DNA of 64,000 bases. It comes from Plicaturopsis crispa FD-325 SS-3 (lineage: Eukaryota > Basidiomycota > Agaricomycetes > Amylocorticiales > Amylocorticiaceae). Location of the stretch: assembly GCA_000827205.1 (NCBI GenBank), contig KN832557.1, positions 442,493-506,492 on the forward strand. Direction: 5' to 3'. Shown one piece after another: positions 11,041 to 59,237 of this stretch. The position numbers were made by a program, and so were the translations under genes. The notes under the pieces are model-generated. The model was not told where the DNA came from and ran no database searches. It saw nothing but the letters and a program-made list of their open reading frames with translations. The first letter of the stretch is position 1. Every line of letters starts with the position of its first letter.

Positions 11041-14000
11041 TCACTCGAGCTCCCGCCAAGGCCTATCAACATTGGCTTCAGCCTCCCGAAGATCGTCATC
11101 CCCGTTAGCATCCATGCCGGCGAGAGAAAGACTCTCCATCCGCCTCGTGAACTCGTTCATGTCTGCGAGCCCGAGGTCGCGAATCTCCTGGTCGTACCCG
11201 CCTTGTTCGTTGACAGGTGCCCCTGTGTCCCAGTCAGGTGGAGCACCACGCCAGCCGCCATTGACATGAACATAGTTCAAGAACGACCGCCAGAGCGGAT
11301 CGAGGCCTAGCACGGCGGGGTCGCCGACGATGATGAGCAACGCCTTAGCTCTCGTGACGGCAACTGGGGAATATCTATTAGTGGAGGGACGTGCATCAAT
11401 CGAGCAACATATGTTTACCGTTGAAACGGCGTGGATTCGCGACGAATCCTAGCGTATGCCTCAGGTCGTACTCTACAAAGTCGCGGCTGCTCCGGACGGT
11501 GGAGATGATGATCACAGGCCGCTCCTACAAAGCGTTGAGAATTGGTTTGTCGTCAGAAAGCGGAAGTCACATACTTGTCCTTGAAACTCCTCGACGCTAC
11601 CGACTTTGACACCGTCAGCAACTGCACGAAGGACGTTGCGGATCTTCAGGCATTGAGCGTGGTAGGGTGCGATGACCCCGATGTCCTTGTCCGCTGAACA
11701 GACGTGTCAGTTTTCGGTAGCTAGCATATGTGCTCGATGAACACACCTGTGCGGAACGTCCGGTCATCCCTAAGCTGCTTGACGTAGGCCTTGACCTGCG
11801 TAGCCTCGTCAATGTTGAAGAAAGATGGCGACGAGGCTTCACGATCGTCTTTCCCGGAGATGGCGTGGAAGACAATCGGGAATTTCTTGGAGACAAGGAT
11901 GGGCGCGTCGATATAGGCGTTGATAGCCTTGGGATCGCCACATGGCTGTAGATCACCTCCGTAGAAATTCTCGTTAGGGAATTTGAGAATTGCTGGGTGG
12001 GACCTGAAGTTTTTGACGAGCTTAACGACGCTGAAAGCAGGGAGGGACGTGAGTAGTGCAGCCGTACAGAAGATGAATAATGCACATACGAAATACCGTG
12101 GCCCTGTTCCTCATTGTACACATCGCGCTCCATCAGCCGCTCCAGGTAGCTTTTTTCGAGTCCAAGCTCTCTGGCGACACTAGACCGAATCATAGGACCC
12201 AGCTGCTTGGGATCACCGGACAAGACGATGTTCGTAGCATTATCGGCCATGCCCTTTATGGAGATCATAGCCTCGGGCTCCGTTGCTTGCCCTGCCTCGT
12301 CAATGAAAATGTGCGAGAAGTGTCCGCGAGGCATTCCAATCCCATGCGGCATCGCCGCGGACACGCAAGTCGACACGATGACGCGGAACCGCTTCATCTG
12401 GGACATGGGGGGCACGGAAAAATGGGCCTCAGAGCGAGATGTGTACGGCTCCAATTTGTCCAGGATTTGACTTTTGTTGCGGCACGGCGCGTAGAATCTG
12501 AACATCTCGTCGGGGCTGAGGTCGAGGAGGCGTTCCGCAATAAGATCGGCGGCCGAGTTACTGGGCGCGCAAGCAAGAATGCGAACATTGGGGTTCTGAC
12601 GGAGGACCTGGCGTATAGCTTCGACCATCGTTACGGTTTTGCCAGTACCAGGCCTGTACGACCGTCAGAATTAGGTACATAACAAGGAGACGAAGCAAAA
12701 CGACAACATACGGTCCAAAGATAACGAAAGGCAACGCTCCCGGACCCTGTCGCAGGATCGACGTAACAGCCTGGAGCTGGGGTGCATTTGAAGCGATGAG
12801 GGGATTGAATACCCGCACAGCACCGGGGCCTGCTCGCGGAGGTGCTGTCAGGCCGCGGACTTCGAGGTCTCCAGGAAACAGCACCCGGTCCGGGGCAAAT
12901 GCACTGTCCAGGGCTTGATATTGCCGCTGGAGAGGTATGCGATTCAGCTTGAAGTGTACCGTGTGCCTCGGCGCGCTTCGGAACGACGCGTGGAAGCACA
13001 GTCCAACCTCTTTCTCGCGAACGACGTGCACATGACCTTCATACCACCTGCCTGGAGCGTCGCCGTCTTTGTGGACCAGAATAAGATCCCCTGGGCGCAC
13101 GAACGAGCTTGAGAACTGTAGAATTACCAAAGCTAGTTTATCACTCACCGACCAGAACGCTTGGGCGCTTCTCAGCTAGCCCAGGGACCTCAAGGCTAGC
13201 GCAGAAGAGACGAAGATGAGAATGGATTGGAATGTTAGTACAGTAAGACCTACTAGTAGTAAGTTCGCATTCCGCCACCGTAGCGCTGCAGCACAGCGCC
13301 GTGTATATCATATATCTGCAAGTCTTTCCTAGTAGCGAGAAATGAGATCAGTCACGCGCTGAGAGCGGCCAACAATGCAGATGGGAGTACGTACTTCATC
13401 CGGTGCTCTTCAGCCCACAGGAGATACTTGAAGTGTCGACCGTGGGTCGCACTTTGAAGGACGGCGGGCAGAAAAGACGCGCGAACGCGTTCAATCTGTT
13501 CTTTCAAAGACCCCGTATCCAAAGCCACAGCGAAGTTCGGAGGAATATTGGCGAGAGGCAACTTGCCGACGTACGGAATTGCTCTGAGGGCAGGAGGGGC
13601 TTCGCCTGGGATGACATCCGTTTCGTCCGCTCGTGCCACACGCGCACGGGGTACGTAAGGCGCTTTCGGCCTCAACAGTTCATGGTCCGCCTTGCTGCCG
13701 ACTATAGCAACGAGAGGCCTGACGATGATAAATTTTTGCTTGAGCTGGAGGTCCTCGAAGACGATTTCGAGGCGATCATCATAACGTCCGATATTGACTT
13801 GATTGAATCTGACGACGACGGTGACCGGCTGACCCATTTTTACCATGCGCATCGCAGTATTGCAGGAATAAGAAAACCTAAAAGCAGGATATCAGACATA
13901 GGTTTGACGGTTCGATGGATATGAACTTACGAAGACGTTGTACGAGCATTTTTTTCCGACGTGAGTTTAACCTCGACCATGGATATCTGAGCGGTTGGGG

Positions 14001-14577
14001 AAGTCCCAGAGATAATCGCGGAAAGAGTGCAGTTTTGGACCGCACGGACTGCTTCCACTATTCCGAAGTCGAGGTTACCCGACACCATGACACCATGCTT
14101 GTCTTTTTCAGCTTCATCCAAACTAGCCCTCCAAGACGAGAACCGCAGCATCTGCTGGTGGCGCTTGGACGTGGGATGGGATCGCGAGGCGACATTGGGG
14201 ACCTGTGCGTTGCAGACACTGCAATACGTATGTTGCGCAACGCTAGTTGCCACCTCTGGAGCAAAGTTGGGACTGATGCCCTGTTGCGCTGTATTCGTGA
14301 GGTGACCTGGGTCTGATGCGTGCGCGTGCCAGAATGGACCAGGTACCTGTACATTGCAAGGCCTACACAGCAAGAACGTCGAATACCCAGCCATTGTTTT
14401 TTTGTGCCTTTTCCCAGCGATATGGTTTCGGTATGTTGTTAAGGCCATGTAGGGAATGCCGCAGGGCTCGCATGTCCGCACGTCATGAACGTGCGGACAG
14501 GAATCGTTGGTGCATACACCATTGGCCTTGAGAAGCGGGCAGACAATGAAAGCTGGGGCGAAATTAGGATGAGGCAT
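11041..14577 (-). CDS. Zinc-finger SF1 RNA helicase, MOV10/SDE3/Upf1-like (copy A)
   Basis: Predicted RNA helicase of 1008 aa. The N-terminus carries a CCCH finger (C-x8-C-x4-C-x3-H, ending SCPHVH) and three U1-type C2H2 fingers (C-x2-C-x11/12-H-x5-H). A beta-rich region follows (about 215-480), then a full SF1 core: Walker A GPPGTGKT (about 545), SNSAAD, Walker B FIDEAGQ (about 663), [19 protein letters not shown] and motif VI VAVTRAK. MOV10/SDE3/Armitage relatives unwind RNA in silencing and transposon control. Ten exons: 13931-14577, 13395-13877, 13254-13328, 13149-13195, 12712-13090, 12090-12653, 11747-12030, 11575-11693, 11419-11524, 11041-11363. Intron positions match copy B exactly. 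It is transcribed divergently from RPT6. The helicase class is sure; a silencing role is inference. Confidence 0.92.
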
Positions 14578-15136
14578 TATGCAGACAGAAAAACGCGCTC
14601 GACGCTTTATAAGTGAACCAGCGTCGAAAGGTGGGGGATGTCAGGCCAAATGCTGCGGCGCGGCCATGAGGCGTTCGAATTGCATATCGGTGTTCCACTG
14701 AGGAAAATCGACGCTAGATTGGTGTCCTCGATGGGCATTTCGTCGATAATGGGGCCTCAACGAGGCAGACTAACTGCGGGTAAGAAGACAGTGAGCGCTA
14801 ACCCATGCCGATAGGGAATGGACATTCCCATTGCATACTCGCTCGGCAGCTTGGACCGTAGACAAGCTTCACACACAAAACACGAGCCCAGAGTGGACGC
14901 AGGAAGGAAAGGACAAGGAAATTGATTGCAGCCACTGTCACTGTTGTGAAGACCGAGGGATCATGGCAGACGACGTCTGAGGGGAGACCCAGAATCCTGG
15001 TAAAACGCGGTCGTGTTTTTGACGAAAGAACCCCAATTTGGAAACTTCACGAGGAAAATATGGCGACGACATTTTGGTCCGATCGAGACGTCGACGCGTA
15101 CGCCTCTCCACCACCACTCACGACCAATCTACAACG
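14578..15136. other. Divergent promoter region of helicase A and RPT6
   Basis: The region between two diverging start codons. Apart from the TATA box close to helicase A, I see no recognisable site; no proteasome control element was identified by eye. Confidence 0.55.
14604..14611 (-). promoter_or_regulatory. TATA-like box of helicase copy A
   Basis: TATAAAGC on the minus strand, starting 34 nt upstream of the ATG. If used, transcription would begin at or just before the start codon, giving a very short leader. Inferred from sequence and position only. Confidence 0.45.
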
Positions 15137-16623
15137 ATGCCCGTCGCAATACGAACACCAACCGCTCCCGGAGGAATAAAGTCCTACTACCAGGCGAAGA
15201 TAGAAACCGCCGAACTTACCATAAACCAAAAGACACAGAACCTGCGTCGGTTGGAAGCTCAGCGGAATGCACTCAATGCGCGAGGTGAGCATACTTACCG
15301 GACATGGTGGGGCTTATGCTAATTCTGCTTCAATAGTACGATTACTTCGTGAGGAGCTTCAACTCCTGCACGAGCCGGGAAGTTATGTCGGAGAGATTGT
15401 GAAAGTCATGGGCAAGAACAAAGTGCTTGTTAAAGTCCAACCGGAGGGCAAATACAGTACGTCGTCGCGTCCTCGCTTTCCCCGAGCCTTACTCACCTTC
15501 GGTTCTGCAGTTGTCGATTTCGACTCGGAGATAGAGCTATCGGCGCTTACACCAACATTACGCGTCGCCCTGCGTTCCGACTCCTACACCATCCACAAGA
15601 TCCTACCCAACAAGGTCGACCCGCTCGTCTCCCTCATGATGGTCGAGAAAGTTCCCGACAGCACATACGAGATGGTCGGTGGACTGGACAAGCAGATCAA
15701 GGAAATTAAAGAGGTCATCGAACTGCCCGTCAAACATCCGGAACTCTTTGAATCGCTCGGTATCGCTCAACCGAAAGGTGTCCTCCTGTACGGCCCTCCT
15801 GGAACAGGAAAGACGCTCCTCGCGCGTGCGGTGGCGCACCACACTGACTGCAAGTTCATTCGTGTCTCGGGTTCGGAGCTTGTGCAGAAGTACATTGGCG
15901 AGGGTAGTCGGATGGTCCGAGAATTGTTCGTCATGGCGCGGGAGCATGCACCGAGTATCATCTTCATGGACGAGATTGATTCCATCGGTAGCTCGAGAGG
16001 AGAAAGCGGTTCGGGTGGTGGTGATTCGGAGGTGCAGCGCACGATGTTGGAACTGCTCAACCAGTTGGACGGATTTGAGCCGACGAAGAACATCAAAGTT
16101 ATCATGGCGACAAATCGGATAGGTTAGCGGTTCTCTCTCCTCCTTGCGCGCGCGATATGTTAACGCGGTTTTGTAGATATTCTCGACTCCGCTTTGCTTC
16201 GCCCAGGACGTATCGACAGGAAGATTGAGTTCCCTCCGCCAGGGCCAGAAGCGCGTGTTAGCATCCTCCGTATCCATTCTCGGAAGGTGGGCTATTGTGT
16301 GCTCTTCTCTCACTATGCACGCGACTCATCTATCTTTCGACTATAGATGTCTCTGCAGCGTGGTATCAATCTACGCATCCTGGCCGAGAAGATGGGCCAG
16401 TGCTCTGGTGCGGAGGTACGCGGTATATGCACGGAGGCGGGTATGTACGCCCTGCGCGAGCGGCGGCAACATGTCACGCAGGAGGATTTCGAGTTCGCAG
16501 TGGCGAAGGTTTGTGCTCCACCCATTTTTGTGGCAAGTTGTCTTGCTCATTGTCGTTTTGTGTATCTAGGTCCTGAAGAAGAACCAAGAGGGAAACACAT
16601 CCGTCAACAAGCTCTTCTCGTGA
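15137..16623 (+). CDS. RPT6: 26S proteasome regulatory ATPase subunit Rpt6 (PSMC5/S8)
   Basis: AAA+ ATPase of the base of the 19S regulatory particle, which unfolds substrates and opens the 20S core. The spliced product is 401 aa, close to yeast and human Rpt6. An N-terminal coiled coil ([20 protein letters not shown]) is followed by the OB domain, then the AAA domain with Walker A GPPGTGKT (about 185), Walker [29 protein letters not shown] and [20 protein letters not shown]. Six exons: 15137-15284, 15337-15456, 15511-16122, 16177-16286, 16347-16508, 16570-16623, all in frame. The near identity of blocks such as [20 protein letters not shown] to other eukaryotes makes the call certain. It lies between two diverged helicase copies, on the same strand as copy B. 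Confidence 0.97.
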
Positions 16624-17107
16624 ATGGTTTTGTTGTACTTCGTCTCTGCCTGGCAATTCCATCTCTTTCCAGTTCGACTGAACTTGCCTTGTGACGCGAG
16701 CTCGACATCGCGTGACCAGCGCGTTTCAACTCTAAGGAGTTTTCAGTGTTCACACGTCCCAGTAATTTGAGCGACTCAGTACTAGTCACTGACTACACCT
16801 TAGTCTTCATAACATCCACATCACATCCTTCCATATTTCTCGATGTACAAAGGCACTCTGGGCCAATTGTGGGCGACAAAGTCATCCACGCGCGACATCT
16901 TCAGAGATCTTGCCCCAATTTGACAAAAACATCCGCCCCAGGCGCGACCAGGACGCGAGCTGGCAGTTTGGCTTGGAGCTTTGGACGTTGCTTGGACGCG
17001 CAATCTTTGCGGCTCGATTCTAGTCTCCAGTGGGCAGCGTGCATTACTATACCCCTGCTGTAGCAGCTATACCCACCTCCCTCGACCTCTTGGCTTCATA
17101 GGCAAAC
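16624..17107. other. Intergenic region RPT6 3' end to helicase B start
   Basis: Contains the RPT6 terminator and the helicase B promoter. A TATA box as clear as in copy A is not seen; TATACCC-like sequences at about 17048 and 17071 are the nearest candidates. Confidence 0.45.
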
Positions 17108-20100
17108 ATGGACAAGAAACGAATATGCCCTACCCTATTCGCCAAAAGCATTTGCACCACCCGGACGTGTCCTCACCAGCATGACGCTGTAATCTGCGAA
17201 GACTGCGACGTTATTTGTTGTCCCGCCTCGACCTACAAGGCACATGTTGGGGGAGCGGGCCACCGCAATCGGATCCGCGGTCTGGCTGGCGAATTATATT
17301 GCCAGCTGTGCGAGAGAATAGTCGCGAAGCACGGCTGGAAAGCCCATATCGACGGCGCGCCCCACCGGAAAGCCGCTGCTAGACAAGGCGTGGGCCCTGT
17401 GGTCGAGCCCGACGCGCCGCCTCCGACAGACGCGTTTGGCACGCACTACTGTGGTCTCTGCGATCTCCGCCTACTGCGCAAGGACGTGTCCACGCATTCG
17501 AGGAGCATGGGGCACCGCAAGAAGGAGGCGTATTTCTCGTATAAGGCTGCCCTCGAGGATGCGGAACGGGACAAACATGGGGTCGTGGTGCGAGGGGATT
17601 GTGATTATGGCGTCGTCGAGGCCGCGGACTCGGAGAAGGGCATCGTCAAGTCGTACGGGATTGAGACAAGCCTCCCGGAGGCGCGTATCGCAATAGTCAA
17701 CGTCAATTTTGCATCTTCGGGCGATGAACGGCAAGACGCATTGTATTTACACGTTACATCTATGTGCGTCGTGCGTGTCTAACAGTATTTCTGCAGGTTT
17801 TCGGCACACGTTGACACGCACACTGTATCATACGGAAAGCCGGCTCTCCTCCGAGTACGCTTCCAGCAGCGGCATATTGGGCGCTACCAAGATTACCTCG
17901 AGATGGTCTTGGAGGACTTGCATCTTAGGCAACGTTTTGTCATCGTGCGGCGACTCCGTGCTATTGTTGGAAACAAGGCCGACCATGACGAGCTCAGGCC
18001 AAGAGCCCCATATGTTCCACGGCAGCGGACCGAGCGTGTGGAGGAAACGAATGCACTCCCGGGTGTCCCTCATCCGTCTCTCGCTGTTATACCATGGACG
18101 GTTCCGCTACCACATGCTGACATACCCCGTGCTATTGAGACTGCCTTGTCTGGTACATGGCACGATGCCATCGGTCGTATCCGCAGCATGTTTATGCCCA
18201 GAGTGTTTTGCACGGAAACGTACGCACGCCACTTCAAGCACCTCCTTTGGGTGGAGGAGATTCGGATGAAGTGAGTGGGCTGACACCTCCTTAAATGTAG
18301 TTCCATTCATCATTTTTACAGTCGAGACCTCGAGATGTACGACATTCTGGATGCACGACTTCAGCAGCATCTTCCGTTCTACTAGTATGTCTCACCATCA
18401 TGGCCTTGCTCTCAGCTCAGACCTGTCCTGTTCAGTCTAAAGGTACCTGGGTTAGCGGAAAAACGACCAAGTGTCCTCGTCGGTAGCCCATGTCTCTTGT
18501 TTCTCAGTCGATCTTGGTCTCATTGTGATGTGATTATAGGTGATCGTATCCTGGTTCAAAGGCAAGGGGGCTACTACCGATGGTACGAAGGCCATGTCCA
18601 CATCGTGCGTCAAGAAGAGGTCGGACTCCGGTTTCACGCGTCTTTCAAGGGATGGACGCCAGACCAGCGCTACATAGTGCACTTCAAACTCAATCGCTAT
18701 CCCACACGGCGGCAACACCAAGCGCTAGATACTTCTTTCTCTCAGGAGCGGCTGCTATTTCCCGTGGAAAGCCATATCAAGGATGCGGATGTGCCTTCAC
18801 CTGAATATTCCCGGTTGCGGATGTTTAACAAACTTATCTCGGACAACCCTGCCCAGCTCCAGGCTGTTTGTTCGATTGCAAAACAACAATCTGGGGGCCC
18901 GCCCATCGCTATTTTTGGACCGTAAGATCTTTATACCCCCTTGTTTAGAGTGTCGCTAACGTACAAAATTGTAGGCCAGGAACCGGGAAGACTGTAACCA
19001 TCGTTGAAGCCATCCGTCAAATACTTTACCGGACTCCAAACGCGCGTATCCTCGCGTGTGCACCGAGCAACTCTGCGGCCGACCTAATCGCAGAGCGTCT
19101 AACGGCCCTCAGCCCCGACGAATTGTTCAGGTTCTATGCGCCGTCCCGCAACAAAGACCAGGTCCCAGATGTATTGGAGCCATACACCGCACGACCGAAC
19201 GTGCACTTCTCTGTGCCGACGATGCATCGACTAAGGGGGTTCAAAGTGATCGTTTCTACTTGCGTTTCGGCTGGCATGCCATTTGGTGTCGGGATGCCCA
19301 GGGGACACTTCACGCATATATTCATCGACGAGGCTGGACAGGCTACGGAGCCCGAGGTCATGATTCCGATCAAGACCATGGCAGACGATATGACGAAGGT
19401 CGTTCTCTCGGGGGACCACAACCAGCTTGGACCGATTGTACGATCCAGTATCGCGCGCGCGTTGGGGCTGGAAACAAGTTATCTCGAGAGATTGATGAAG
19501 CGCGACATATACGATGAGAAAGCGGGCTACGGCATGACGTGCGTTGTAGATCGTTGCTCTGCAAGCATTCTTCTAAGTCGCATTTTCAGTGTCGTCAAAC
19601 TCGTTAGGAACTTCAGGTCGCACGAAGCGATCCTGAAGTTTCCCAACGAGCGGTTCTACAAGGGCGAGCTGCAGCAATGCGGCGACCCCAAGGACATTGA
19701 TGCATACCTGGGCAATTCATTGTTGATATCCAAGGATTTTCCGGTGATTTTCCATGCAATATCTGGCCAAGACGTCCGCGAGGCGTCGTCGCCGTCCTTT
19801 TTCAATATCGACGAAATCACAGTGGTGAAGGATTATATTCGCAAACTCAGGGCTAACCGGCAGGTGCGGCTCAGTAAGTACTCCCTGCGGATCGTGTGAT
19901 GGGGCGAGGAAACATTTTAACTGCTTCCCAGCTGACCATGATATTGGGGTGATCGCGCCGTATAACGCGCAATGCCAGAAGATGCGAACTGGTCTCCGTG
20001 CTTTCGCTGACGGCGTCAAAGTTGGAAGCGTAGAAGAATTCCAAGGACAGGTGTGTGGCCTATTATTCCAGCGTGTTTTCACAACTTTACACCTACCAGG

Positions 20101-20568
20101 AGCGGAAAGTGATCATTATTTCGACCGTTCGGAGTAGCAGGGAGTTCGTCGAGTACGACCTGAAGCACACTCTAGGGTTTGTTGCAAATCCTCGAAGATT
20201 CAACGGTATGCGCTCATTTCTTACATACTGGGGCGTGAGGCACTGACCACAATGTTACAGTTGCTGTCACCCGCGCGAAAGCGTTGCTGATTGTGGTCGG
20301 CGATCCCAAAGTACTCTCTTTGGACCCTCTTTGGCGTTCGTTCCTCAATTACGTGCATACCAACGGTGGCTGGACAGGCGACAATATCTCTTGGGATCCC
20401 CAGGAACTTGTGGACGAGGACCCGAAACGATATGCCCTTGGGATTCGCGAGCAGGGTGTAACCGATATGAACGACTTTGCTCGGCGGATGGAATCACTGG
20501 CTCTGGCTGGGGCGAATGGAAGCGAGGAGGATTTAGAGGAGGCGGAAGCAAACGTGGACAGGCCGTGA
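17108..20568 (+). CDS. Zinc-finger SF1 RNA helicase, MOV10/SDE3/Upf1-like (copy B)
   Basis: Paralogue of copy A, 993 aa as read. It has an N-terminal CCCH finger ([11 protein letters not shown] to TCPHQH), three U1-type C2H2 fingers, a beta-rich middle and an SF1 core with [29 protein letters not shown] (motif III differs from the GDPKQLGP of A), RNFRSH, EEFQGQ and VAVTRAK. Ten exons: 17108-17742, 17797-18270, 18322-18384, 18436-18482, 18540-18921, 18975-19538, 19590-19873, 19932-20050, 20100-20205, 20261-20568. Exons 4 and 6-9 have the same lengths as in A (47, 564, 284, 119, 106 nt). The frame closes at TGA exactly where A and C encode the Trp of a PWRE motif. The next codons read R-E-V-E and then a stop, so five residues seem to have been lost recently. 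Still likely functional. Confidence 0.91.
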
Positions 20569-29542: not shown

Positions 29543-31632
29543 TCATAGCAGTTTGGACTGCTTCAGGTGTTGGCGGATGACCATATCGCGCACTGTAGAA
29601 AGCGTGAGCCATTATGGTATACACGTAGAGGTGAGTGTTCTCTCACCACTTGCAAGAATGCCAGCAGTGGTAGCGGTGTCCTGTGGAGTCATATGGCATG
29701 AATAACGTCGGTCAGAAGAGCTTGCAGCCGGTAACGTACAGTCACAGAGGTGCAGAAACCGTAGAATTTTCGGGGATTGGGTGAGTATTCCCTGTGGATG
29801 GCACTGAATTTACTCCGGAAGTCTGCGGGCGGAACATGAGCATCAGCATGTTTATCCCCAAAACCCGTGGTTAGAGAGCATGCCGAAATGGGCGTACATT
29901 TGGACGCAGTTTCGATATCGTTTTCTCTGTCCCCGTAGCTGCGTACGTACTTGGCGAGGCGTACGCCTGCAGTCAGTTTAGCCTCCAGTATGTCGCACTT
30001 GTTCAGGAACAACACTAAATCGACGTTCGCTAGTAGCTTGTTCGAGCATACTGCTTTCCAAAGCAAGACACTGTCCTCCTGCAGATGACGTTAGTATGCT
30101 CTTGCTCAGTGGGATATGTCTTCGCAAGGTATGTACGCACGAGACGGTTGACGGAGCGATCTTCGGAGAGCACCTGGTCAAAACCAGATATAGGTGCCAG
30201 GAATATTATGGCATCCACTGTGCTTGGTACAAAGCCGTGAGTGAATGCATCCCACGGACTGGCTACAGCAGACACGAACCGTTATCAAAGAACGGAGCCC
30301 ATGTTGCTTTCCGCAGGGAGATTAGTCAAAGTGAAGCATTACCGAGGCTAAGGTACTCACGACGCTGCAGAGAATGTTAGTGGTATGACACATAGATGAA
30401 CTCTGATATCTACCTGTGACCGCGATCCACCCACGTCGATTATTCGCCATTCAGTACCGCTCTCTCGTCCCGCAGATGCTTCCATCTCGAATTTGTATTC
30501 CGACATGCCTACCGTCTTCAAACGTGCTTTAAGCACGTCATCTGATAGAGAAATGTCAGGACAACTTGGAGGGCACAGATAACAATCATACTGCACCATC
30601 GGAGGGTAGGTACTTGAGGGATGTTACTCGTTTCAAATCGTTAAGGAAACTGGATGGCGCGTCGTCAGTACACGATAGGTGAGACGAGCGAGATGTAACC
30701 CACAATCCCGGAAACTCTTCCAGTCTGATTTTTCGTCGTCGTAAGACTTCTCGGACGTAACGGTCGTTCCAGAGAGTTTCAATGTCATGACGCAGTTGGT
30801 GGAGGACCTCTTGAGGCTCGTCCTTGCTCTCCATGCCAGTCGATCCGACTGTGCTCGGCCGATTCGTGCGTTTGCGGGCCTCCTTGGCCCACATGCCTTT
30901 CCATCCCGTCCCAGGCCGCACGAATATCTCCTGGTTTCGACTTGAGGAGTCGTAGCTTGTGCTGCCCTGGAGGCGACGTGAGCGGTCGTTGGACCCACAG
31001 AGCTGTGTTGGTTCGTCCTCATTGGGTGGAACGAGTTTGGCGATGAGGAGGGCCTCGATGTGTCGGAGAGGTAGGAGGCGCATTTTCAGCATTTCCAGTT
31101 CCTGTGGAAGCCCGGATTCGATTTCTTCACTATCCTCACCGCCGCTGTCTACTGCGGGAGATTCGACGTCGGAGATGGCATCGAGGATAGTGCGTATCGA
31201 GCGGCATAGGTTCAATTGAATCACACCGCGCCAGAGGAAACGCTCTTCGCGAAACGCAGTGGGCGTGTATAAACGCTGGAATTCTAGGTAATCATGAGCT
31301 CTCCAGCGGGGCAATCGGAGGTCGCATGCAACTCACGTCGAAGGGTAGTAGATTTGCCTACGCGTACGCGACGAGGTGGTGAGCGAAAGCAGTGACTGTC
31401 ACGATGGATTATGCGCACCAGATTCGCTCTGACCGAGCAGCAATAATCGGACGATCCTACGCTTTTTCTGCTTCTGCCTTTCCTGGCGGATAGCTTCGTC
31501 GATTTCCAGGCTAACGCGGTTGGCCTCGGCTTCCCGCTTGAGCCTAGCAGCCCGTTCCTCTGGCGACTCGTTCGGCGGAGGTTTCAGGGCCTCTGCCAAA
31601 GGATCTAAGACAGCTTGAAACCTAGCTGGCAT
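29543..31632 (-). CDS. Heterotrimeric G-protein alpha subunit, divergent basidiomycete type
   Basis: GTP-binding signalling protein, 483 aa, longer than the usual 350-360 because of a long acidic, low-complexity insert in the helical domain. Motifs: P-loop GQSESGKST, switch I DVLKARLKTVG (with Arg and Thr), switch II DVGGSRSQRPTW (Ser where catalytic Gln is canonical), FLNKCDI and TSVTDTATT. It starts MPARFQ, so there is no Gly2 myristoylation site, and it ends KQSKLL. Twelve exons: 31419-31632, 31337-31357, 30704-31283, 30597-30649, 30414-30541, 30361-30364, 30280-30306, 30141-30217, 29898-30078, 29740-29822, 29647-29680, 29543-29592. Exon 6 is a 4-nt microexon (CGTC), needed to give SQRPTW with canonical spacing. 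Family certain; receptor and effector unknown. Confidence 0.92.
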
Positions 31633-34600
31633 AACTTTGCCAGAGAAGGGAGCAGGACAGGACACAGGTGAAACGTAGGTTCAAGCCAGGCGGAGAGCAA
31701 GTAATAGTTGATTGGGAGGGTCAGCCACCAGGCACCCCGATTGATCGAGGAACAGGCGCTTCCTTCCCAAAACTCGTGGCCGCGTTTGTGAACTCGGGAC
31801 TTGTTTACATACCCCCTCCTCCTCCATGTAAACGGCGCTCCGTGCGCATTTGCCTCTCCTTTAAAACGTTCTCCTATGCTTTTCCTGCTTAAAAGTCTAG
31901 TCATTACGGTATTGCCTGTGCGGCCTGTCGCGCAAGGAACGTGGTCGCACACAACCCTCGAAGTGTCTCGATCCTATGTACACATACCGCGACAGTCGCA
32001 GTATCAAGGTGGTCCAGCACAGGAGTTCCACCTGGTGCCTCCGAGCCCTCTATAGTCGGCCGGCGTGGGGCGTGGGTGTTATCACTGAATCGGACTCCAT
32101 ATTTCATTCCTCGGTTAAGTCCACGAGGCACCGCGCACCAGGACGTGTGGTGAGCACCTTTCCGGATCTGATGAGCTTTGAGTAGTCTCCGGATCCCTCT
32201 GTCGACGCCGAGCAAGCTGCTTCCGTCTGCGTCAAGAGCCAGTTCAAGCGTTACAACTCCAGCTCAGGCACCCTGCAAAGTCTCCGAAGGGATTGTGGCG
32301 TCTAGCCAGCGGCTTCCCTTCCTTATGCGGCCTCGCCCACCTATTCTAACGTGGCATATGAGGTATGTCAGATGCCCTTGAAGTGGTTTTACTTATCGTG
32401 CTTCGATTTCCTTTCGGCCTATGCAGATCTGTATCAGGACGCACACGTACGTTATGGACGCTGCCCTCGGACCGTGTGAGACCCAAGTACTGATCATTGC
32501 TCTGCACACTTTCTCCACCGCTCGTCGCAGAACTTTATCACATTACGAGAATTGAGCTGGTGACGCCGCCGCATGAGATGGTGAGTCTGATAGGAGAGCG
32601 CCACCCGCTCCCTTATCTGAAGACTGAGTCTCATGTTCGTGCAGCGTTGTAATGAATCGACACCGGCGGATTCTCCCACTCCTGAACATGATGCCTGTGC
32701 CTGCAATGAAAAGCGCATCGCTGTATTTTGAGAATGCAATGCGCCGTGTGTGCACTATCCGTGGATATGATCCTGTGATCAGAAGCCCCCCACATCGCTG
32801 AGCCTATTCATGTCTGCGATTCTCTCAGGTGCGCTGACGCAGTTTTTTTCTTATCCCCTGATCTTCTCATCGTCCCGCTGATTCCAGGGCTTTGCTTCCG
32901 TCATCTATATGCATCGTTGCGTACGCTTCGTGTTCTTACACTGGACAATAGCATACTCTCCTATCCGATCGCTGTACGTTTTACCTGCGTGCTCCCCCTC
33001 GCGTCCTCAGCCTCGCATCCTCCTCGTTCACTGCATTTGCGCAAAATCCACCGCGGCGGACGTTTTCGTGGGACGTACATACAGTGCATTCGGCCGAGAG
33101 GTCTAAACGTCGCACGCAATGCACACCAGAAATTCCTACGCGTCCATCCATCATGCTGCGCGTAATGCATAGCATGTACGTGCCTGACCTGCTCTAATTC
33201 CCCTTTGCTAGAAGATGATCAGGCACGCCGTGGTTCGAGCAGTTGTTCGTCGTCCCGATGAAGCGTACGAATCATCGCGATATCCCGAGACACTCTTATG
33301 CCGCCGATGGTATTGGCTGCTTGGGGGTGCGTTCAGACGCCGGACGGTCACTCAACGCTGGCTCCGGCGTGTTTCGACGACACCGCGCTGCTTAATGAAT
33401 TGCCATCGTCCCTGACGCGAAACAGATCAAGATTAATCTCGGTCTGCCTGTAATCTCCAACTCCACCCGATGGTAAGTACTCGCCAGCCTCGTCGCGTCG
33501 TCAAAAAACTCACTGTGGGCTCAACAGTGATGATACTGAGCAATGCGCATTCATTCTAAACTGGGTGCACTTGTGCATCAGTACCGAATAGTAACTCCCC
33601 CGGACTCAGCGCACGAAGGTTGCGCTCCAACTGTGATGCACATTCGGCGAGTTCGGGTCCCACCCACCACCACTTTTCCGTGACTGCGTTGGTCTGTGCG
33701 TGTCTATGCTACATCTACTCCTGCCGCTGTGGACGGAGTTGTTGTTGGGTATGGGTAAGAACAAATCTGTGATCAATCCATATCGTTGGGGGGCTCGACC
33801 AGACGTCACAGGAGGCATCGCCACGCCTGCGTTATGCTCCTCTGTACGTTTTGGTGATCGCCATTACGGTCGGCTCTATTCAACGTGCATCTCCTCTCGT
33901 ATGTTCTCTTTACTTTGACGCATTCCACTGAATGGCTCTCCCAAGTCACACACGCCGTAGGTGCATGCCCGTGCTCTCTGGAACTTGCCGTGCTAGAGGG
34001 TTGCTCTCCTTCCGCGGGATATATATGACGCGTCACAGGTTGCTATTTTGCTCCGCTCGTCCACACGCGGGTGTCCACTAATGATAGCTTTGGTGTTTTT
34101 CCATATAACAGTCCTTTCCCTCTCGTTCTTTCCGGTCCTCTTCCCTGGCAGCTTCGCAACACGCTACGTATCTCCTCAACCATTTGCACCTTTTCCTGTC
34201 GAACGCGTCGCGTCGCGACTCGGGCGTTTCTCTTGTCACCTACCCCTGACCCCACGCTACACGCATACTATACCCCGCAATATATACCGCGTCGTCGGAT
34301 GATTGTCCTGTCATCCACTTCTGCTGTAGAATCCCGTGAATTTATATATGCCAGCATCCGCCCGGCGTCCGCGTCGAGGGTAAAACTCGGGTAGACACGC
34401 CATTATGGCGGACCGACAAAGTCACATGATTTATACAGGTAGCTTGAATCATTTTCCAAGGCGAGTCATTTCGAAAACTCGTATTTAGTTTCTTTCTACT
34501 TGTCCACATCCTAAGCACACAAAACCTAACCTCGCGCTCGTCTGGAGCGTATTTCCTATACCCGGACCCAACGATATCACCCTGGTATCGCATACCTCGC

Positions 34601-39988: not shown

Positions 39989-40384
39989 AGTTGAGCAACG
40001 CGGGGTAAGTGAATCGAGAGTGCGACCACTCAGGACAGTGCGTTCCCAGAATTTCGAGGTTGTCTTCGTCTGGTATTCCCCGGTTTGATTCTATCGTGTT
40101 GAGACCGCGCCTTTACTTGGTGCAGCAGCCAGCTGGAGTAGAACGAGGATGTTTATCGGGCCTCGCAGTCGAAGTCCACTAGCTGGATTTCCGAAATAAG
40201 TGACACCCTTTAGGGATTTACTGACCGTGGGAATATCACTTTGTAGACGTTGTGCCATCTCGTTCACAAACACGTCTACATTTCCCGACGCGTTTCTTGA
40301 TCAACGGCTTTCCGATCATACACCGCCATATTGAACGGATAGCGCACTACTTGACCCTCACATTGTCGCAGAAATTCACCCGCT
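39989..40384. other. Divergent promoter region of VPS33 and the ChAPs gene
   Basis: A 396-bp shared upstream region of two secretory-pathway genes. No distinct binding site recognised. Confidence 0.5.
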
Positions 40385-43204
40385 ATGGCAGAGGCGTCCT
40401 TCAAAGACGTCCCTGAGCTCTTCGAGGTACGGCAATGGCTCTAATATCTTGCCTGGAAACGGCGTCTAACCGCATCCTCAGGTTGAACTGGGAGAATCGT
40501 TGACAGCACGGACGGAAGCGCTCTGTAGGTATTCGCGCTCGATCCTCGAAACGTGTGCTGAGATGCACTTGTTTCACGGCAGCTACATTCAGGGAGCTTG
40601 GACCGCCAGACTTATGCCATGTCGTTAAGAGTACAGGACGCAGTGGGACACGCGACGTAGGATTTACCAAGTTTACCGTGTTTCGGCTGCACTGAACAAA
40701 CCTGCTGATAGTTGGGCTCTTACCACTACGTCTCTGGTGTCGACGCCTCGTCCTCCGCGTCTCTCGCTGCATACATCAACTCCCTGACATACTCCATTGA
40801 GGACAACTCTGCTTGGTTCGGGAAGAGTGCGACGTGGAAAGTTCGGAGCGGATGCTACTGGTGCGTGTATGCTAGTCGTGGATGCTTATCAGTGAGCTCA
40901 CAATCGCGGGACAGTTGCTTCAACGCATTTTCGAGAGTGGACATACGCGTAGACGTGAAGATACCCGGAGGTGTAAAGGCGTGGGTGATAGATCTACGCG
41001 GCGAAAGGTGAGTACCACGGCTTCGCCTATTATCGAGGTTAAGACTCTCGAAACGCAGACACGAACCGACGCCTGAAATATGGCAAGAAACCTACGTATC
41101 CGCGCTTCTGCGCGCAATACTTTACTCTGACGACCCTACTTATCACCTCGACGCCTACCGCAAGCTCGACCCTATCACCACCCTTGAGGGCGAACTTCGA
41201 TTCCTCCAAGCTGTAGAAGCTTTGTTCCTAAAAGGTGGCTTTTCTCCCCTGCGTAACGGTACGGTCGTTGACGTCACAGCAACCAGGATGGCAGGTCGGG
41301 TCAGACCCCGAGATCCAAGTCGCTACCGTTGTATCCAATCATCTGACGGCAGGCGTGATGAAGTACTTTGGAGACAGTGGGCGGTACCAGCAGCCAGCTA
41401 ACTTATTCGAAAAATTATCCGCGCGGGAGCCGGAAATCGCGTCCCTTCTCGCGCAAAGCTACATCGGCATGAGTGAGCATCGTAATTCCTCGACTCCGTA
41501 CATCACGCTGACCAATTCCGCACAGACGAGGAGGTCAAGGCGGTCCAAATCATGTCAGTTGCTTTGAAACAGACGCCACAATCGTACACGCTACTCCACG
41601 TGCAGTGCGACTTTCTGCGGTCGAAAGGCCGTAATGACTGGGCCCTGAAATTGGCCCGACAGGCCGTCAACTGCGCGCCGAGCGAGTTTGTCACCTGGGA
41701 GAAACTCACCGAACTGTATATTGACCTCGGAGAATACGAATCAGTAAGAGCTTATCTGAGCAGTTTTTCCATTCCAGCTAACCCAAGTGGGTCAGGCATT
41801 GTTAACGCTTAACTCGTGTCCCATGTTCACATTCAACGGTCGAGATGCGCACCGAAACATCACCCCCGCCCGTGTGCACCTTCCATTCCAGCGCCTAATA
41901 GGCGATATTCTACCAGAGAAAGTTAAGACAGAAGATGATGAGGTATGCTAGTTTCAATTTCCGAGTAGCATTCGGTCCTCACAAACGAACTCTAGGCCGA
42001 TCCGGCACTCCAGCGCCTCCCCGCCCCAGGCCTCCGTGGTACATGGGCACGAGCATATGCTCTACTCACACGTCTTGTCTCGCACATCGGGTGGGACGAG
42101 CTACTGAAGACGCGGAGCTCCGTATTCGTTATGGAGGAAGAGTATCGCATGCAAAAGGCGCAAGGCGATTTTAGCAATGCATCTGCGCCTGTCATTCACG
42201 AAGACGGGACCGTTGATACCTCACGGGACTCCACGCGATCGGAGGGAACGACGTTGGCAAATCCTGGCGAGGCTGATGACGATGCGTCAACCCGGGGGCA
42301 GGTCGATACACCTAACTCCTCAAATCAAAACGGCCTGGACGTCGGTATTCCGGAGATCAGAGTGTCTACCGAGTCCGATGTGGAGCGGGAGACTCGGAAT
42401 GCGGACAAGGCCAAGGCACCCGCAAACGGGGACGCACAACAAAATGGCGATGTGCCGGGCGTAGGCGATGGTTTGGAGAAACCTAGGCAGGCTGCTGCAG
42501 GAGAAGGCGAGCAGACTGACGGTGCTGAGCCCCCCAGTCCCTCTCCCCAAGAGCCTTTCTCGTTCAGCAACAAGCGGTTGTGCGAACGATGGCTCGATAA
42601 TCTGTTCATGGTCCTGTATGAGGTAACAAATCCCCTAAGTTGCTAAGTTGCCACGCGTTGTTCCACGTCGCTGATACGTCTCGTAGGATTTGCGCGTCTG
42701 GACAATCTACAGAGCCGAAGTTGCGCATTTCAAAACGCAGCACGTTGCATACCGCAAAACGGGCATGGAGTGGGAGATACTGGGTGACCTAGGCCTGCGG
42801 TTACATCACAAGGAGGACGCGAAAGAAGCCTACCAGCGCTGCCTGGATACGCCGCGGTATTCCCTCAAGCCCTGGGCGAAACTCATGGAAATGTACGCGG
42901 AGGAAGGTGATATCCAGCGGTGTATTCAGACTGCCATCCGCGTGGCCGCATACCAGTACTCCGAGTACACCGAGATGACGGTATGGTTATCTTTGTCGTG
43001 CATGCGGAGTTCGTCGCACTGACTGGTCATGTTTAGTACCCAACTCTCATCGCACGTTGCTTTTTCAAGCTCGGGCAAATACATGGACACGGGAAGATCT
43101 CTTTCACACTGTTAAGCATGGGCCTCCCGGATCCTATTCTCAAAATCATGGACAGTTACCTGCAGTATGGGAAGGTATTCAAAGTGGAGGGCTATGATTT
43201 CTGA
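40385..43204 (+). CDS. ChAPs family protein (Chs5-Arf1-binding; Bch1/Bud7/Chs6-like)
   Basis: Cargo adaptor of the exomer complex at the trans-Golgi, which exports selected membrane proteins such as chitin synthase III in yeast. The spliced product is 738 aa. It starts MAEASFKDVPELFEVELGES and shows LGPPDLCHVVKSTG, SYHYVSGVDASSSASLAAYI, NAFSRVDIRVDVKIPGGV, then TPR-like helical repeats (LLAQSYIGMNEEVKAVQIM, KGRNDWALKLARQAVNCAP) and FTFNGRDAHR. Near residue 460 a disordered acidic insert interrupts the repeats; the end reads LSMGLPDPILKIMDSYLQYG. Twelve exons: 40385-40426, 40482-40524, 40583-40656, 40712-40860, 40915-41007, 41059-41234, 41287-41472, 41526-41743, 41796-41942, 41996-42622, 42687-42980, 43037-43204. 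The yeast paralogue cannot be assigned. Confidence 0.92.
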
Positions 43205-55784: not shown

Positions 55785-58700
55785 TTACTCGTATTCTCGC
55801 CAAGGTTGGTCTGCAAAGCCCTCCCCATCGATCCCATCTTCACTATAGCTTTCGCCATCCGCAGCCGCCCAGCTCTCACTATTCTCCACGATGTAAGACT
55901 TGAGCCTACGGATCATATCCTCGGTATCGCCCTCTGCTCGTTGCCTTACTTCGGCGTCGTACCCACCCTCGGCGCGCACAGGCTCTTCGGGATCCCAGTC
56001 GATCTCTTTGCCCCTCCATCCGCCCTGAGAGTGGATGGTATTCATGAAGGATCGCCATAGGGGATCGAGGGAGAGGACATTGGGGTTTCCGATGACTATG
56101 AGCATAGCCTGGGCTCGGGTGATAGCGACTGCAAAGATGTGATTACTCGTATGGCTCAGATTGATTTTTATGCAAATATTCACCGTTGAAACGACGTGCA
56201 TTAGCAACGAAGCCGAGGGTATGCCTGATGTCATGCCGGATGAAATCCGTGTTGCTCCTCACGGTGGATAGAATGATGACTCGGCGCTCCTGCAAGTAAG
56301 TTCAATGAGATGTTATGCTTTCATTATTCATGTTTGTCGAGCACCAACCTGCCCCTGGAACTCCTCGACACTACCAACCTTGACATCCCTCAGCGAGGAA
56401 GGCAAGGCGTTGAGAATTTTGTGACATTGAGCATGATACGGAGTTATTATGCCAATGTCCTCCGGTCCTGAACGATATATATAAGTTCGTAAACGGTATC
56501 TAGAACGTGAATGTCACTCACGTATGCGGAGCTTCCGGTCGCTGAATAGATCAAGGCAGTACTTCTTAACTTGAGTAACCTCATCAATATTGAAAAACGA
56601 CGGAGACGACGCTTCGCGGCTGTCTCTACCAACAATTCCGTGGAAGACGACAGGGAATCCTGGTGTGGCGAGCACGCTGGAACGCAAAAGACTGTGGGTG
56701 ACTACTGGATCTCCGCATGGTTCCAACTCGCCGTCGTAGAAGTTATCGTTAGAGAAGGCCATGATTGCTGGATGCGATCTCCATTGCTGCACAAGCTTAA
56801 CGATACTAGGGATATACGAGTCGGTTCGACGATCATATAAGGTAGACAGACAGCAGGACTCACGTTGTGCCTCTATTTGAATCCGGGCCGAGATCATAAA
56901 TCGGTAGTGCCATGATACGCGACAGATAACTCTCCTTCAGTCCGAGAGAATTTGCCATAGACGAGCGAACAATTGGCCCCAGCTGCTTGTTGTCACCGGC
57001 AAGGATGATATTAGTCGCGTTGTTAGCCATTGTCTTGACGGGAACCATGATTTCTGGCTCCATAGCTTGCCCGGCCTCGTCTATGAATATGTGGGTGAAA
57101 TGTCCCCGTTTCATTCCTAACCCGTCCATGACGCCCCCTGCGACACATGTAGACACGACGACGCGGTATTTCTCTAGAACTTGACGTGAAGGTATAGCGA
57201 AAACTTCGTTGTCATTGATGAGGGAGAACTCGCGTAGGCTCTTGGGAAGATCTCCGTGCTTGCGCGACATGGAGTTCAAGCGGAAGAGGACGTTCGGACC
57301 TAGAGTGGACAGTTTCTTGGCGATTTGGTCGGCTGCCGAGTTGCTAGGAGCGCAGGCGAGTATGCGGGCATGGGGCTTGTTGATCAACAGTTGATGTATG
57401 GCCTCGACAATGGTGACTGTCTTTCCGGTCCCCGGTCTACACCATTGCTAATATGTAAATCAATGCTCATGACTGCGAGACAATACGAACTCACGGCCCA
57501 AAAACGACGAAGGGGACGCTCCCTTCCGGTTGATGTAGAATGGCACCTACGGTCTCCAGTTGCTTTCTATCTCCGGACAGCAAACGATTTACGGGGTTAA
57601 TCTCGTTCAACTGGTCTTGAGTAGGCGCCCGGATGTTCGCGATATGTTCTCGACCAGGGAAAAGAAGACGCTGTAGCATGAACGGATATTTGAGAGCACA
57701 ATGCATGCGCCGAAGAGGAAGGCGATTGAGGTGGAATCGGATGTCGAATTTCGTCCCTCGGAATGTGCTGAAGTTCGAAGCGAATCTGAGGCTGACGTGG
57801 TTGGCATATACCATATGCACGCAACCAGCGAACCAATCGGTCGAGGTACCTTGCTGCTTCACGAGAATGGTGTCCCCGACTATGACGGAAGGTCGACCTT
57901 CTCCTAACCCTTCCACTTGGAGGCTAACACTGATATTAGCAAAACAGTACAGTAGAAGTCATCGGGATACGCACTCATATCGTGGATGCTTCGCTTTGAG
58001 CTCAACATCAGTCATAGAGAATTGGTCGAGGTCACGTCTTTTCTATAGCATTAATTTCTGAAATTGCAGGAACACGAGATACTTCCTACTTACCTGCATT
58101 GTTCCTCTTCAATCCAAAGAAGGTGTTGGAAACGGCTGGTGTAATTGCTCTGATTGAGCGATGCAGGTATATACCTCTGCATGACCGCTGCGCGAGCGGC
58201 ACGTATATTCGCTAGTCCCGGCGGAAAGGCAGTGGCAATCAAATCTTCGGGGGCCTTGAACTCGAGGAGCTTTTTCACCCATTTCGTTTGGGACCAAGTC
58301 GGAGGGCGCTCGGCCGGAATTATGCGCAGTATGCGCTCAAGCGGTACGTATTGACGTCGTACGTACGGTGCAGAAGGTTGGAGTTGGGCATGGTCCTCTC
58401 GGGATCCGACTGTGGCGCAGAGTTTGCGAGTAATCGCAAACTGGATCCTGCGCTGGGTGTCTTTGAACAGAAGCTCCAACGTGTCATCGTAGCGACCCTC
58501 GTAGGCTGGATGGAATACAACCACCACGGCACGAGCACGAGCGCTCTCAACTTTCTTGGATTCGCCCAAGAGTGTGGCAGAGAAACTGTTGCCCCATGGT
58601 AAGAGACATGTATACGATAATTATCACATGTACACTCGACAAACCTTTTTCCATGGGAGTCCTGACGCGGAGACGACGTGACTCTAATACTCTCCAACTT

Positions 58701-59237
58701 GACGCGACGCCCGACCAAGTTCGTTTTTATCGTAACGGCCATTGACTGTGGATCCGATGACCCGACGGCCTCCTCAGCTTCGAGGATACCAAAATCGACG
58801 CCCTTGGGGTGGGATACCGTGATACCATGCTTATCGAGCTCAGCACTGGCGAGCGCATCTTGCGCATCGTACTGTCGTTGCCGCTGCTGGTGGTGACGGC
58901 TTCGATTGTGAAATGGCCATTGGGTAGGTGTAATTTGGAGATCGCACGGCGCGCAGTGGATCAGCCCATCGGCACCAGGCGCTCGCCCACTCGCCGCGCC
59001 AGACTGCGGTGCCGAGACGTTCGCCGCTGGCGGCACGGCGAAACTATCGTCCAGTGCATTCCGCGAAAGGACACCGACTCGCTCCAGGTGCTTACGGCTC
59101 CTCACATGCCCCTCCCAGCTATATTTGAGAGGGACGACGACGCCACAAGGGCACTGTCGAATATCGTGGTTTTTCCGACAGTCCTTGACGTTGCAGCCCG
59201 AAGGTGTCAGAGCACGCTGACAATATTTCCCTGGCAT
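55785..59237 (-). CDS. Zinc-finger SF1 RNA helicase, MOV10/SDE3/Upf1-like (copy C)
   Basis: Third member of the family, 1000 aa. It has an N-terminal CCCH finger ([11 protein letters not shown] to CRKNH), then a U1-type finger whose knuckle is reduced to C-x-C (QCPCG) and one regular finger, so one finger fewer than A and B. The SF1 core is complete: [41 protein letters not shown] and VAITRAQ, and it ends QPWREYE. Nine exons: 58645-59237, 58094-58585, 57975-58037, 57495-57923, 56864-57436, 56522-56805, 56349-56467, 56184-56289, 55785-56128. Introns match A and B except that the one splitting VLVG/DLILV is absent. The start is the ATG before PGKYCQ; a longer frame upstream lacks an ATG. Confidence 0.91.

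What the first reader, a model, noticed from the sequence alone, without database searches (positions are those of the whole stretch)
11041..20568. Pair of zinc-finger SF1 helicases flanking the proteasome gene RPT6
Seen: two ~1000-aa proteins, each with one CCCH finger, three U1-type C2H2 fingers and a complete Upf1/MOV10-like helicase core, point outward from RPT6 (minus and plus strand), with a third at 55.8-59.2 kb. Known: MOV10, SDE3 and Armitage act in RNA silencing and transposon or virus control, and human ZNFX1 links zinc fingers and helicase in small-RNA inheritance. Inference: this may be a locally expanded RNA-surveillance family of agaricomycetes whose CCCH plus U1-finger front end reads RNA ends or structure. 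The fused architecture is the best candidate here for an undescribed system.
Basis: partly seen in the sequence, partly recalled or inferred. Interest (0 to 1): 0.75.

Follow-up and report, generated by a model that had tools for sequence, protein, structure and literature searches.

The report
Mushroom MOV10 helicases flanking RPT6
These are mushroom versions of the well-known RNA helicase MOV10, carrying extra zinc fingers that probably grip structured RNA; they belong to a known kind, but their position beside a proteasome gene and their copy-by-copy evolution are unusual enough to test.

Summary
Gene A (minus, 11041-14577, 1008 aa) and gene B (plus, 17108-20568, 993 aa) flank a complete RPT6 (15137-16623). 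Each has one CCCH finger, three U1-type C2H2 fingers and a full SF1 core. Gene C (minus, 55785-59237, 1002 aa) has CCCH plus two C2H2 fingers. A listed protein of Plicaturopsis crispa FD-325 SS-3 is identical to A over 94% of its length.

It is not an undescribed system. All three carry the MOV10 beta-barrel and group with MOV10/SDE3, apart from UPF1 and SEN1. The family aligns co-linearly with animal MOV10 from the last finger to the end, so that finger is ancestral. The extra front is usual among the listed Agaricomycete relatives, and a chytrid has a similar one. These are the only MOV10-type genes found in this genome, which also has Argonaute, Dicer and RdRP. A silencing role was not tested.

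Unexpected: gene models in three other species also join RPT6 to such a helicase, yet A/B copies mostly cluster by species, with one clear conversion-like tract. Fingers diverge fast; the motor does not. Most likely role: remodelling RNA-protein complexes on structured RNA.

The parts
11041..14577 (-). Gene A, MOV10-type helicase, 10 exons, 1008 aa
   Evidence: Splice model; P0002 of Plicaturopsis crispa identical over 94%
14485..14541 (-). Gene A CCCH finger (residues 13-31)
   Evidence: four ligands present in 100 of 120 listed relatives
14404..14472 (-). Gene A U1-type C2H2 finger 1 (residues 36-58)
   Evidence: hairpin and helix in the model; Pfam zf-met
14302..14367 (-). Gene A U1-type C2H2 finger 2 (residues 71-92)
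14158..14223 (-). Gene A U1-type C2H2 finger 3 (residues 119-140), the finger shared with animal MOV10
   Evidence: Ligands in 117 of 120; the same finger of relatives aligns with the animal MOV10 finger
11233..12800 (-). Gene A helicase core (residues about 515-945, spanning introns)
   Evidence: Pfam AAA_11/AAA_12; UPF1-like fold in a relative
15137..16623 (+). RPT6, 26S proteasome regulatory subunit 8, 6 exons, 401 aa
14578..15136 (.). 559-bp region between the divergent starts of A and RPT6
17108..20568 (+). Gene B, MOV10-type helicase, 10 exons, 993 aa
17126..17182 (+). Gene B CCCH finger (residues 7-25)
17195..17515 (+). Gene B three U1-type C2H2 fingers (residues 30-52, 65-86, 115-136)
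18833..20391 (+). Gene B helicase core (residues about 505-935, spanning introns)
55785..59237 (-). Gene C, MOV10-type helicase of a separate clade, 9 exons, 1002 aa
   Evidence: trees
58890..59222 (-). Gene C finger region: CCCH (59166-59222) and two C2H2 fingers (59088-59153, 58890-58955)
55998..57583 (-). Gene C helicase core (residues about 499-932, spanning introns)

Best explanation
A, B and C are the MOV10/SDE3-family SF1 RNA helicases of this mushroom. Shown: MOV10 domain order, helicase core, and a front of one CCCH and two or three U1-type C2H2 fingers. Inferred: the fingers dock the protein on structured or double-stranded RNA, while the UPF1-like motor walks along the flanking single strand, stripping proteins and opening structure so that decay or Argonaute/RdRP enzymes can act. 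Clients could be ordinary mRNAs, transposon RNA or mycovirus RNA. A and B are fast-diverging front ends on a conserved motor. C belongs to a separate clade of the family.
Against: No expression, localisation, binding or knockout data. ZNF622, named in the same call as a cytoplasmic 60S biogenesis factor, also matches the fingers (E 4.8e-5), so the fingers may do something other than bind dsRNA. Foldseek gives no significant match for the front (best E 0.42), and a single-sequence search of it found nothing useful (best E 0.72). The MOV10 helical-domain model matches 2 of 3 at E<=1, best E 6.6e-4. The outgroup branches are very long. No SAD-3/Hrr1, HELZ or smut sequence could be placed.
Confidence: 0.7

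Rival explanations
1. General mRNA decay factors like HELZ or UPF1: the fingers select mRNAs and the motor promotes decay, with no special tie to RNAi or defence.
For: HELZ has a CCCH finger N-terminal to a UPF1-like core and drives decay through CCR4-NOT (PMC6769256 passages). A paper on Ustilago maydis, which lacks RNAi, reports a putative basidiomycete-specific UPF1-like helicase, UMAG_10130, with Cryptococcus and smut relatives and suggests an NMD-like role (PMC12511879 passages). If that is the same family, it does not need RNAi.
Against: The long C-terminal half through which HELZ binds CCR4-NOT is absent: A, B and C end about 60-75 residues after the core. No listed name says HELZ, which is weak: the lists are capped and many rows carry no name. 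Whether UMAG_10130 belongs here is unclear: it shares a flattened table row with MOV10, but the text calls it basidiomycete-specific.
Confidence: 0.35
2. A defence family in an arms race: the finger front is a fast-changing sensor of mycovirus or transposon dsRNA on a constant motor, with copies refreshed by gene conversion.
For: A/B identity is 28% in the finger region against 75% in RecA2. Mean column entropy is 2.47 in the finger region outside the ligands and 0.87 in RecA2, over 93 sequences. In Tetrapyrgos, identity is 29-81% before about residue 650 and 86-100% after it. Copies mostly cluster by species.
Against: Fast divergence also fits relaxed constraint. No DNA from other species was available, so no dN/dS. 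Of 12 within-species pairs compared by domain, 6 of them also by sliding window, only Tetrapyrgos shows a clear breakpoint; Leucogyrophana is alike throughout (78-98%, one 71% window), and A/B in this genome show no sign of recent conversion.
Confidence: 0.15
3. An undescribed surveillance system specific to agaricomycetes.
For: The four-finger front on a MOV10 motor was not described in what I saw (search listings; passages of four papers).
Against: Co-linear with animal MOV10 including one U1 finger; a chytrid protein has CCCH plus two U1 fingers; database names already say MOV-10 for some relatives.
Confidence: 0.05

Closest known systems
Animal MOV10 (for example Owenia, Mytilus, fish mov10b)
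   Same: Same order from the last U1-type finger through the middle domains to the helicase core; 865 aligned columns at 34% identity
   Different: The fungal proteins add a CCCH finger and usually two more U1 fingers in front. The vertebrate MOV10 rows scanned show no finger by the pattern used.
Plant SDE3 and animal MOV10L1
   Same: Same helicase clade
   Different: No CCCH or U1 pattern in the plant and MOV10L1 rows scanned; MOV10L1 rows mostly carry another Pfam domain, PF14444
HELZ
   Same: CCCH finger N-terminal to a UPF1-like core (PMC6769256)
   Different: No long C-terminal half here; U1 fingers present here
UPF1
   Same: Fold of the motor
   Different: Other side of the main branch; no UPF1 Zn-binding domain among the Pfam matches of A
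ZNFX1 and SAD-3/Hrr1/RnhA
   Same: SF1 helicases, some with zinc fingers; SAD-3, Hrr1 and RnhA act in silencing (PMC5384783)
   Different: No NFX1-type finger among the Pfam matches of A; ZNFX1 is a distant match. SAD-3/Hrr1 sequences were not compared here.

Membership tests
MOV10/SDE3 | UPF1-like SF1 core (AAA_11, AAA_12) | tested here: met
   3 of 3 proteins
MOV10/SDE3 | MOV10 beta-barrel domain (PF21634) | tested here: met
   3 of 3, best E 2.4e-16; above cut-off in A
MOV10/SDE3 | MOV10 helical domain (PF21635) | tested here: inconclusive
   2 of 3, best E 6.6e-4, absent from the table of A; the region aligns with animal MOV10
MOV10/SDE3 | Co-linear with animal MOV10 outside the core | tested here: met
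   865 columns, probability 100, for 21 Agaricomycete relatives
MOV10/SDE3 | Groups with MOV10/SDE3 apart from other SF1 helicases | tested here: met
   SH-aLRT 99, six own-genome outgroups on long branches
MOV10/SDE3 | 5'-3' RNA translocation, P-body or Argonaute association | not testable with these tools
   Needs biochemistry and microscopy
HELZ | CCCH finger before the core | tested here: met
HELZ | Long unstructured C-terminal half | tested here: not met
   A, B and C end about 60-75 residues after the core
UPF1 | UPF1 Zn-binding CH domain | tested here: not met
   Not among the 23 Pfam families of A at E<=1 (for B and C only the 25 commonest families were shown)
ZNFX1 | NFX1-type zinc fingers | tested here: not met
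   Not among the 23 Pfam families of A at E<=1 (for B and C only the 25 commonest families were shown)
SAD-3/Hrr1/RnhA | Clusters with SAD-3 and Hrr1 in a tree | not tested
   No ascomycete or Mucor name in the capped listings

The most novel reading that the evidence does not exclude
Agaricomycetes keep a cluster of MOV10 helicases around RPT6 as a variable-sensor, constant-motor RNA surveillance set: the CCCH and U1 fingers diversify to recognise different structured RNAs (mycovirus, transposon), while gene conversion between neighbouring copies homogenises the motor; shared regulation with the proteasome gene is possible.
Probability: 0.12. Interest if true: 0.7.

Novelty: new variant of a known kind. 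Interest (0 to 1): 0.36.

Why it matters
MOV10 helicases act in silencing and restrict transposons and viruses in animals and plants, but I found no functional study of the mushroom members in the searches listed. Mushroom genomes carry them in a small cluster with extra RNA-binding-type fingers, here in an organism with Argonaute, Dicer and RdRP. That gives a clean system for asking what the finger front of MOV10 does: exchange fronts between A and B, delete fingers, and read out transposon RNA, small RNAs and mycovirus load. It also corrects the lead: in this genome these are the MOV10 genes, and ZNFX1 or SAD-3-type helicases must be sought elsewhere.

Tried and rejected
Only 120 rows are shown per search and many carry no name, so this absence proves nothing. 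One search repeated with a stricter limit.

Rejected: UPF1, SEN1 or HCS1 membership; ZNFX1 membership; simple positional orthology of the copies downstream of RPT6: PcB, Dentipellis g1693, Tricholomella and Leucocoprinus as one clade is rejected (AU p 1.8e-68). Recent conversion between A and B in this genome: third positions of identical residues match in 23-67% per 60-residue window, mostly near 40%, and the coding sequences share no 18-mer. The label NFX1hel that I gave to two own-genome helicases on contigs 13 and 3 in the tree rests on CGHxC-like repeats seen by eye; Pfam did not confirm an NFX1 finger in the pieces tested. The labels UPF1 and SEN1 were borne out afterwards; HCS1 only weakly (SMUBP-2, E 3.8e-7); SF1x was not checked. 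NCBIfam gave only other helicase names, all below their cut-offs in A.

Selection to note: 74 of the 231 proteins listed by then went to the domain step of the first tree; 4 rows of 86 (two partial own-genome helicases, DNA2, one chytrid) were dropped before building. The entropy figures used 93 sequences, 91 of them chosen because they already had the finger pattern, so ligand conservation there is by construction; unselected counts are. Within-species pairs were picked by species name. Same contig was inferred from equal contig length; Suillus, Amanita and Paramarasmius pairs are on different contigs. In one search, 8 of 31 rows were not trimmed at the front because the trimming motif was not found; their extra columns fall under the 30% filling rule.

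Full report
What is there. Splice models built from codon usage and splice signals, then corrected by hand in B and C, give gene A (minus, 14577 to 11041, 10 exons, 1008 aa), gene B (plus, 17108 to 20568, 10 exons, 993 aa) and gene C (minus, 59237 to 55785, 9 exons, 1002 aa). RPT6 lies complete between A and B (15137-16623, 401 aa; third exon best matches 26S proteasome regulatory subunit 8). A and RPT6 are divergent across 559 bp; B follows RPT6 by 484 bp on the same strand. The window is contig 4, 442493-506492, of a 33.2-Mb genome. A protein named PLICRDRAFT_105552 of Plicaturopsis crispa FD-325 SS-3 (Agaricomycetes, Amylocorticiales) is 100% identical to A over 94% of its length. It starts at an internal methionine and so lacks the first two fingers of my model.

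Genome context. The MOV10 beta-barrel is found only at the three window genes. A whole-genome search with C finds, outside the window, only more distant SF1 helicases on contigs 8, 6 and 14. Both searches read exon by exon and are lower bounds. The same genome holds Argonaute (Piwi) matches at five loci, one of them under the cut-off, RdRP at six loci and the Dicer dimerisation domain at three. Co-occurrence is shown; a shared pathway is not.

Linkage. Among the 231 relatives listed are gene models that run RPT6 into a helicase: Tricholomella (P0093), Dentipellis (P0136, g1693; Russulales) and Leucocoprinus (P0120, g9904). By locus number and contig length, Dentipellis g1692 and Leucocoprinus g9903, also helicases, are their neighbours. 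Two further fused models join a helicase to genes that lie in this window: Arthromyces (a G-alpha-like gene, window 29.7-31.7 kb) and Collybiopsis (a gene with a ChAPs domain, window 40.4-43.2 kb). I read these as neighbouring genes merged by annotation, hence an old conserved block. Gene orientation in those species was not seen.

Evolution of the copies. C-type proteins form their own clade. A and B-type copies mostly cluster by species, but not always. In the broad tree 6 of 11 within-species pairs are strongly supported sisters; Artomyces, Abortiporus, Amanita and P. crispa are weak and Paramarasmius is not a sister pair. In the motor tree 11 of 12 pairs are sisters, 8 with strong support; Panaeolus is unresolved. 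In the N-terminal tree 10 of 11 pairs are sisters (one partial row, Crassisporium_a, left out), 8 with strong support; the P. crispa pair is not. In a third set 8 of 9 pairs are strongly supported and the P. crispa pair is again unresolved. The four copies known to lie downstream of RPT6 do not form one clade (AU p 1.8e-68). Either duplication around RPT6 recurred, or old copies are homogenised. Tetrapyrgos gives one clear conversion-like tract: identity 29-81% before residue 650 and 86-100% after it, against 50-90% to Marasmius in that second half. In P. crispa, A and B are old: 28% identity in the fingers, 72-75% in the RecA domains, and third positions near saturation. Mean column entropy falls from 2.47 in the finger region outside the ligands to 0.99 and 0.87 in RecA1 and RecA2 (93 sequences mostly pre-selected for fingers).

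How it most likely works. Shown: domains, order, clade, conserved metal ligands, Walker and other helicase motifs. From established knowledge (recalled, not from a call): MOV10 and UPF1-like helicases move 5' to 3' on RNA and displace proteins; U1-type fingers of the ZFa kind bind double-stranded RNA; CCCH fingers usually bind single-stranded RNA. Inferred: the front docks on structured RNA and the motor remodels the flanking RNA-protein complex to hand it to decay or to Argonaute and RdRP. I hold the family assignment at about 0.95 and the docking step at about 0.5. Whether the main client is ordinary mRNA or transposon and virus RNA is open.

Literature seen. PMC12511879 (passages): U. maydis lacks RNAi and has a UPF1-like helicase, UMAG_10130, called putative basidiomycete-specific in the text while standing in a flattened table row with MOV10; I could not tell whether it belongs here. 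PMC5384783 (passages): SAD-3, Hrr1 and Mucor RnhA form a cluster that C. neoformans and U. maydis are suggested to lack. [quoted passage not shown] PMC6769256 (passages): HELZ. Other papers were seen as search listings only. I found no paper describing the four-finger MOV10 of Agaricomycetes in the searches made, which cover open-licence papers only.

Verdict. A good observation and a sound hunch about MOV10, but a widespread gene family of known kind, not a new system. The remaining interest is in the enlarged finger front, the conserved place beside RPT6 and the copy-by-copy evolution.

Noticed in passing
14404-14577: The deposited P. crispa model of gene A (P0002, 947 aa) starts at an internal Met and misses the CCCH and first U1 finger, although the upstream frame is open in the same exon and conserved in relatives.
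   Followed up: yes
29740-31668 and 40382-43153: A G-alpha-like gene (Pfam score under its cut-off) and a ChAPs-domain gene in the window are each fused to a MOV10-type helicase in another species' gene model (Arthromyces P0138, Collybiopsis P0137), pointing to a wider conserved gene block.
   Followed up: partly
129-1364: Sin3 co-repressor domain at the left end of the window (E 1.6e-37).
   Followed up: no
49179-50816: A 545-aa open frame with an Ion_trans_2 ion-channel domain (E 7.2e-10).
   Followed up: no
G000 contigs 13 (L011), 3 (L019), 15 (L015-L017), 19 (L018): Several other divergent SF1 helicases in the same genome; the contig 13 model also reads on into AAA-like modules and a CGHxC-rich stretch (seen by eye). 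They may include ZNFX1 or SAD-3-like members; not confirmed by Pfam in the pieces tested.
   Followed up: partly
P0232 Lactarius, P0141 Hericium, P0286 Dentipellis: Lactarius, Hericium and Dentipellis have further, more divergent long or double-helicase proteins (1355-2247 aa), possibly a separate expansion.
   Followed up: no
P0152 Mycena kentingensis, P0159 Agrocybe chaxingu: Two helicases closest to gene C are merged in their gene models with a part carrying PF01321/PF00557 (M24 aminopeptidase, name recalled); that part had no match in this window.
   Followed up: partly
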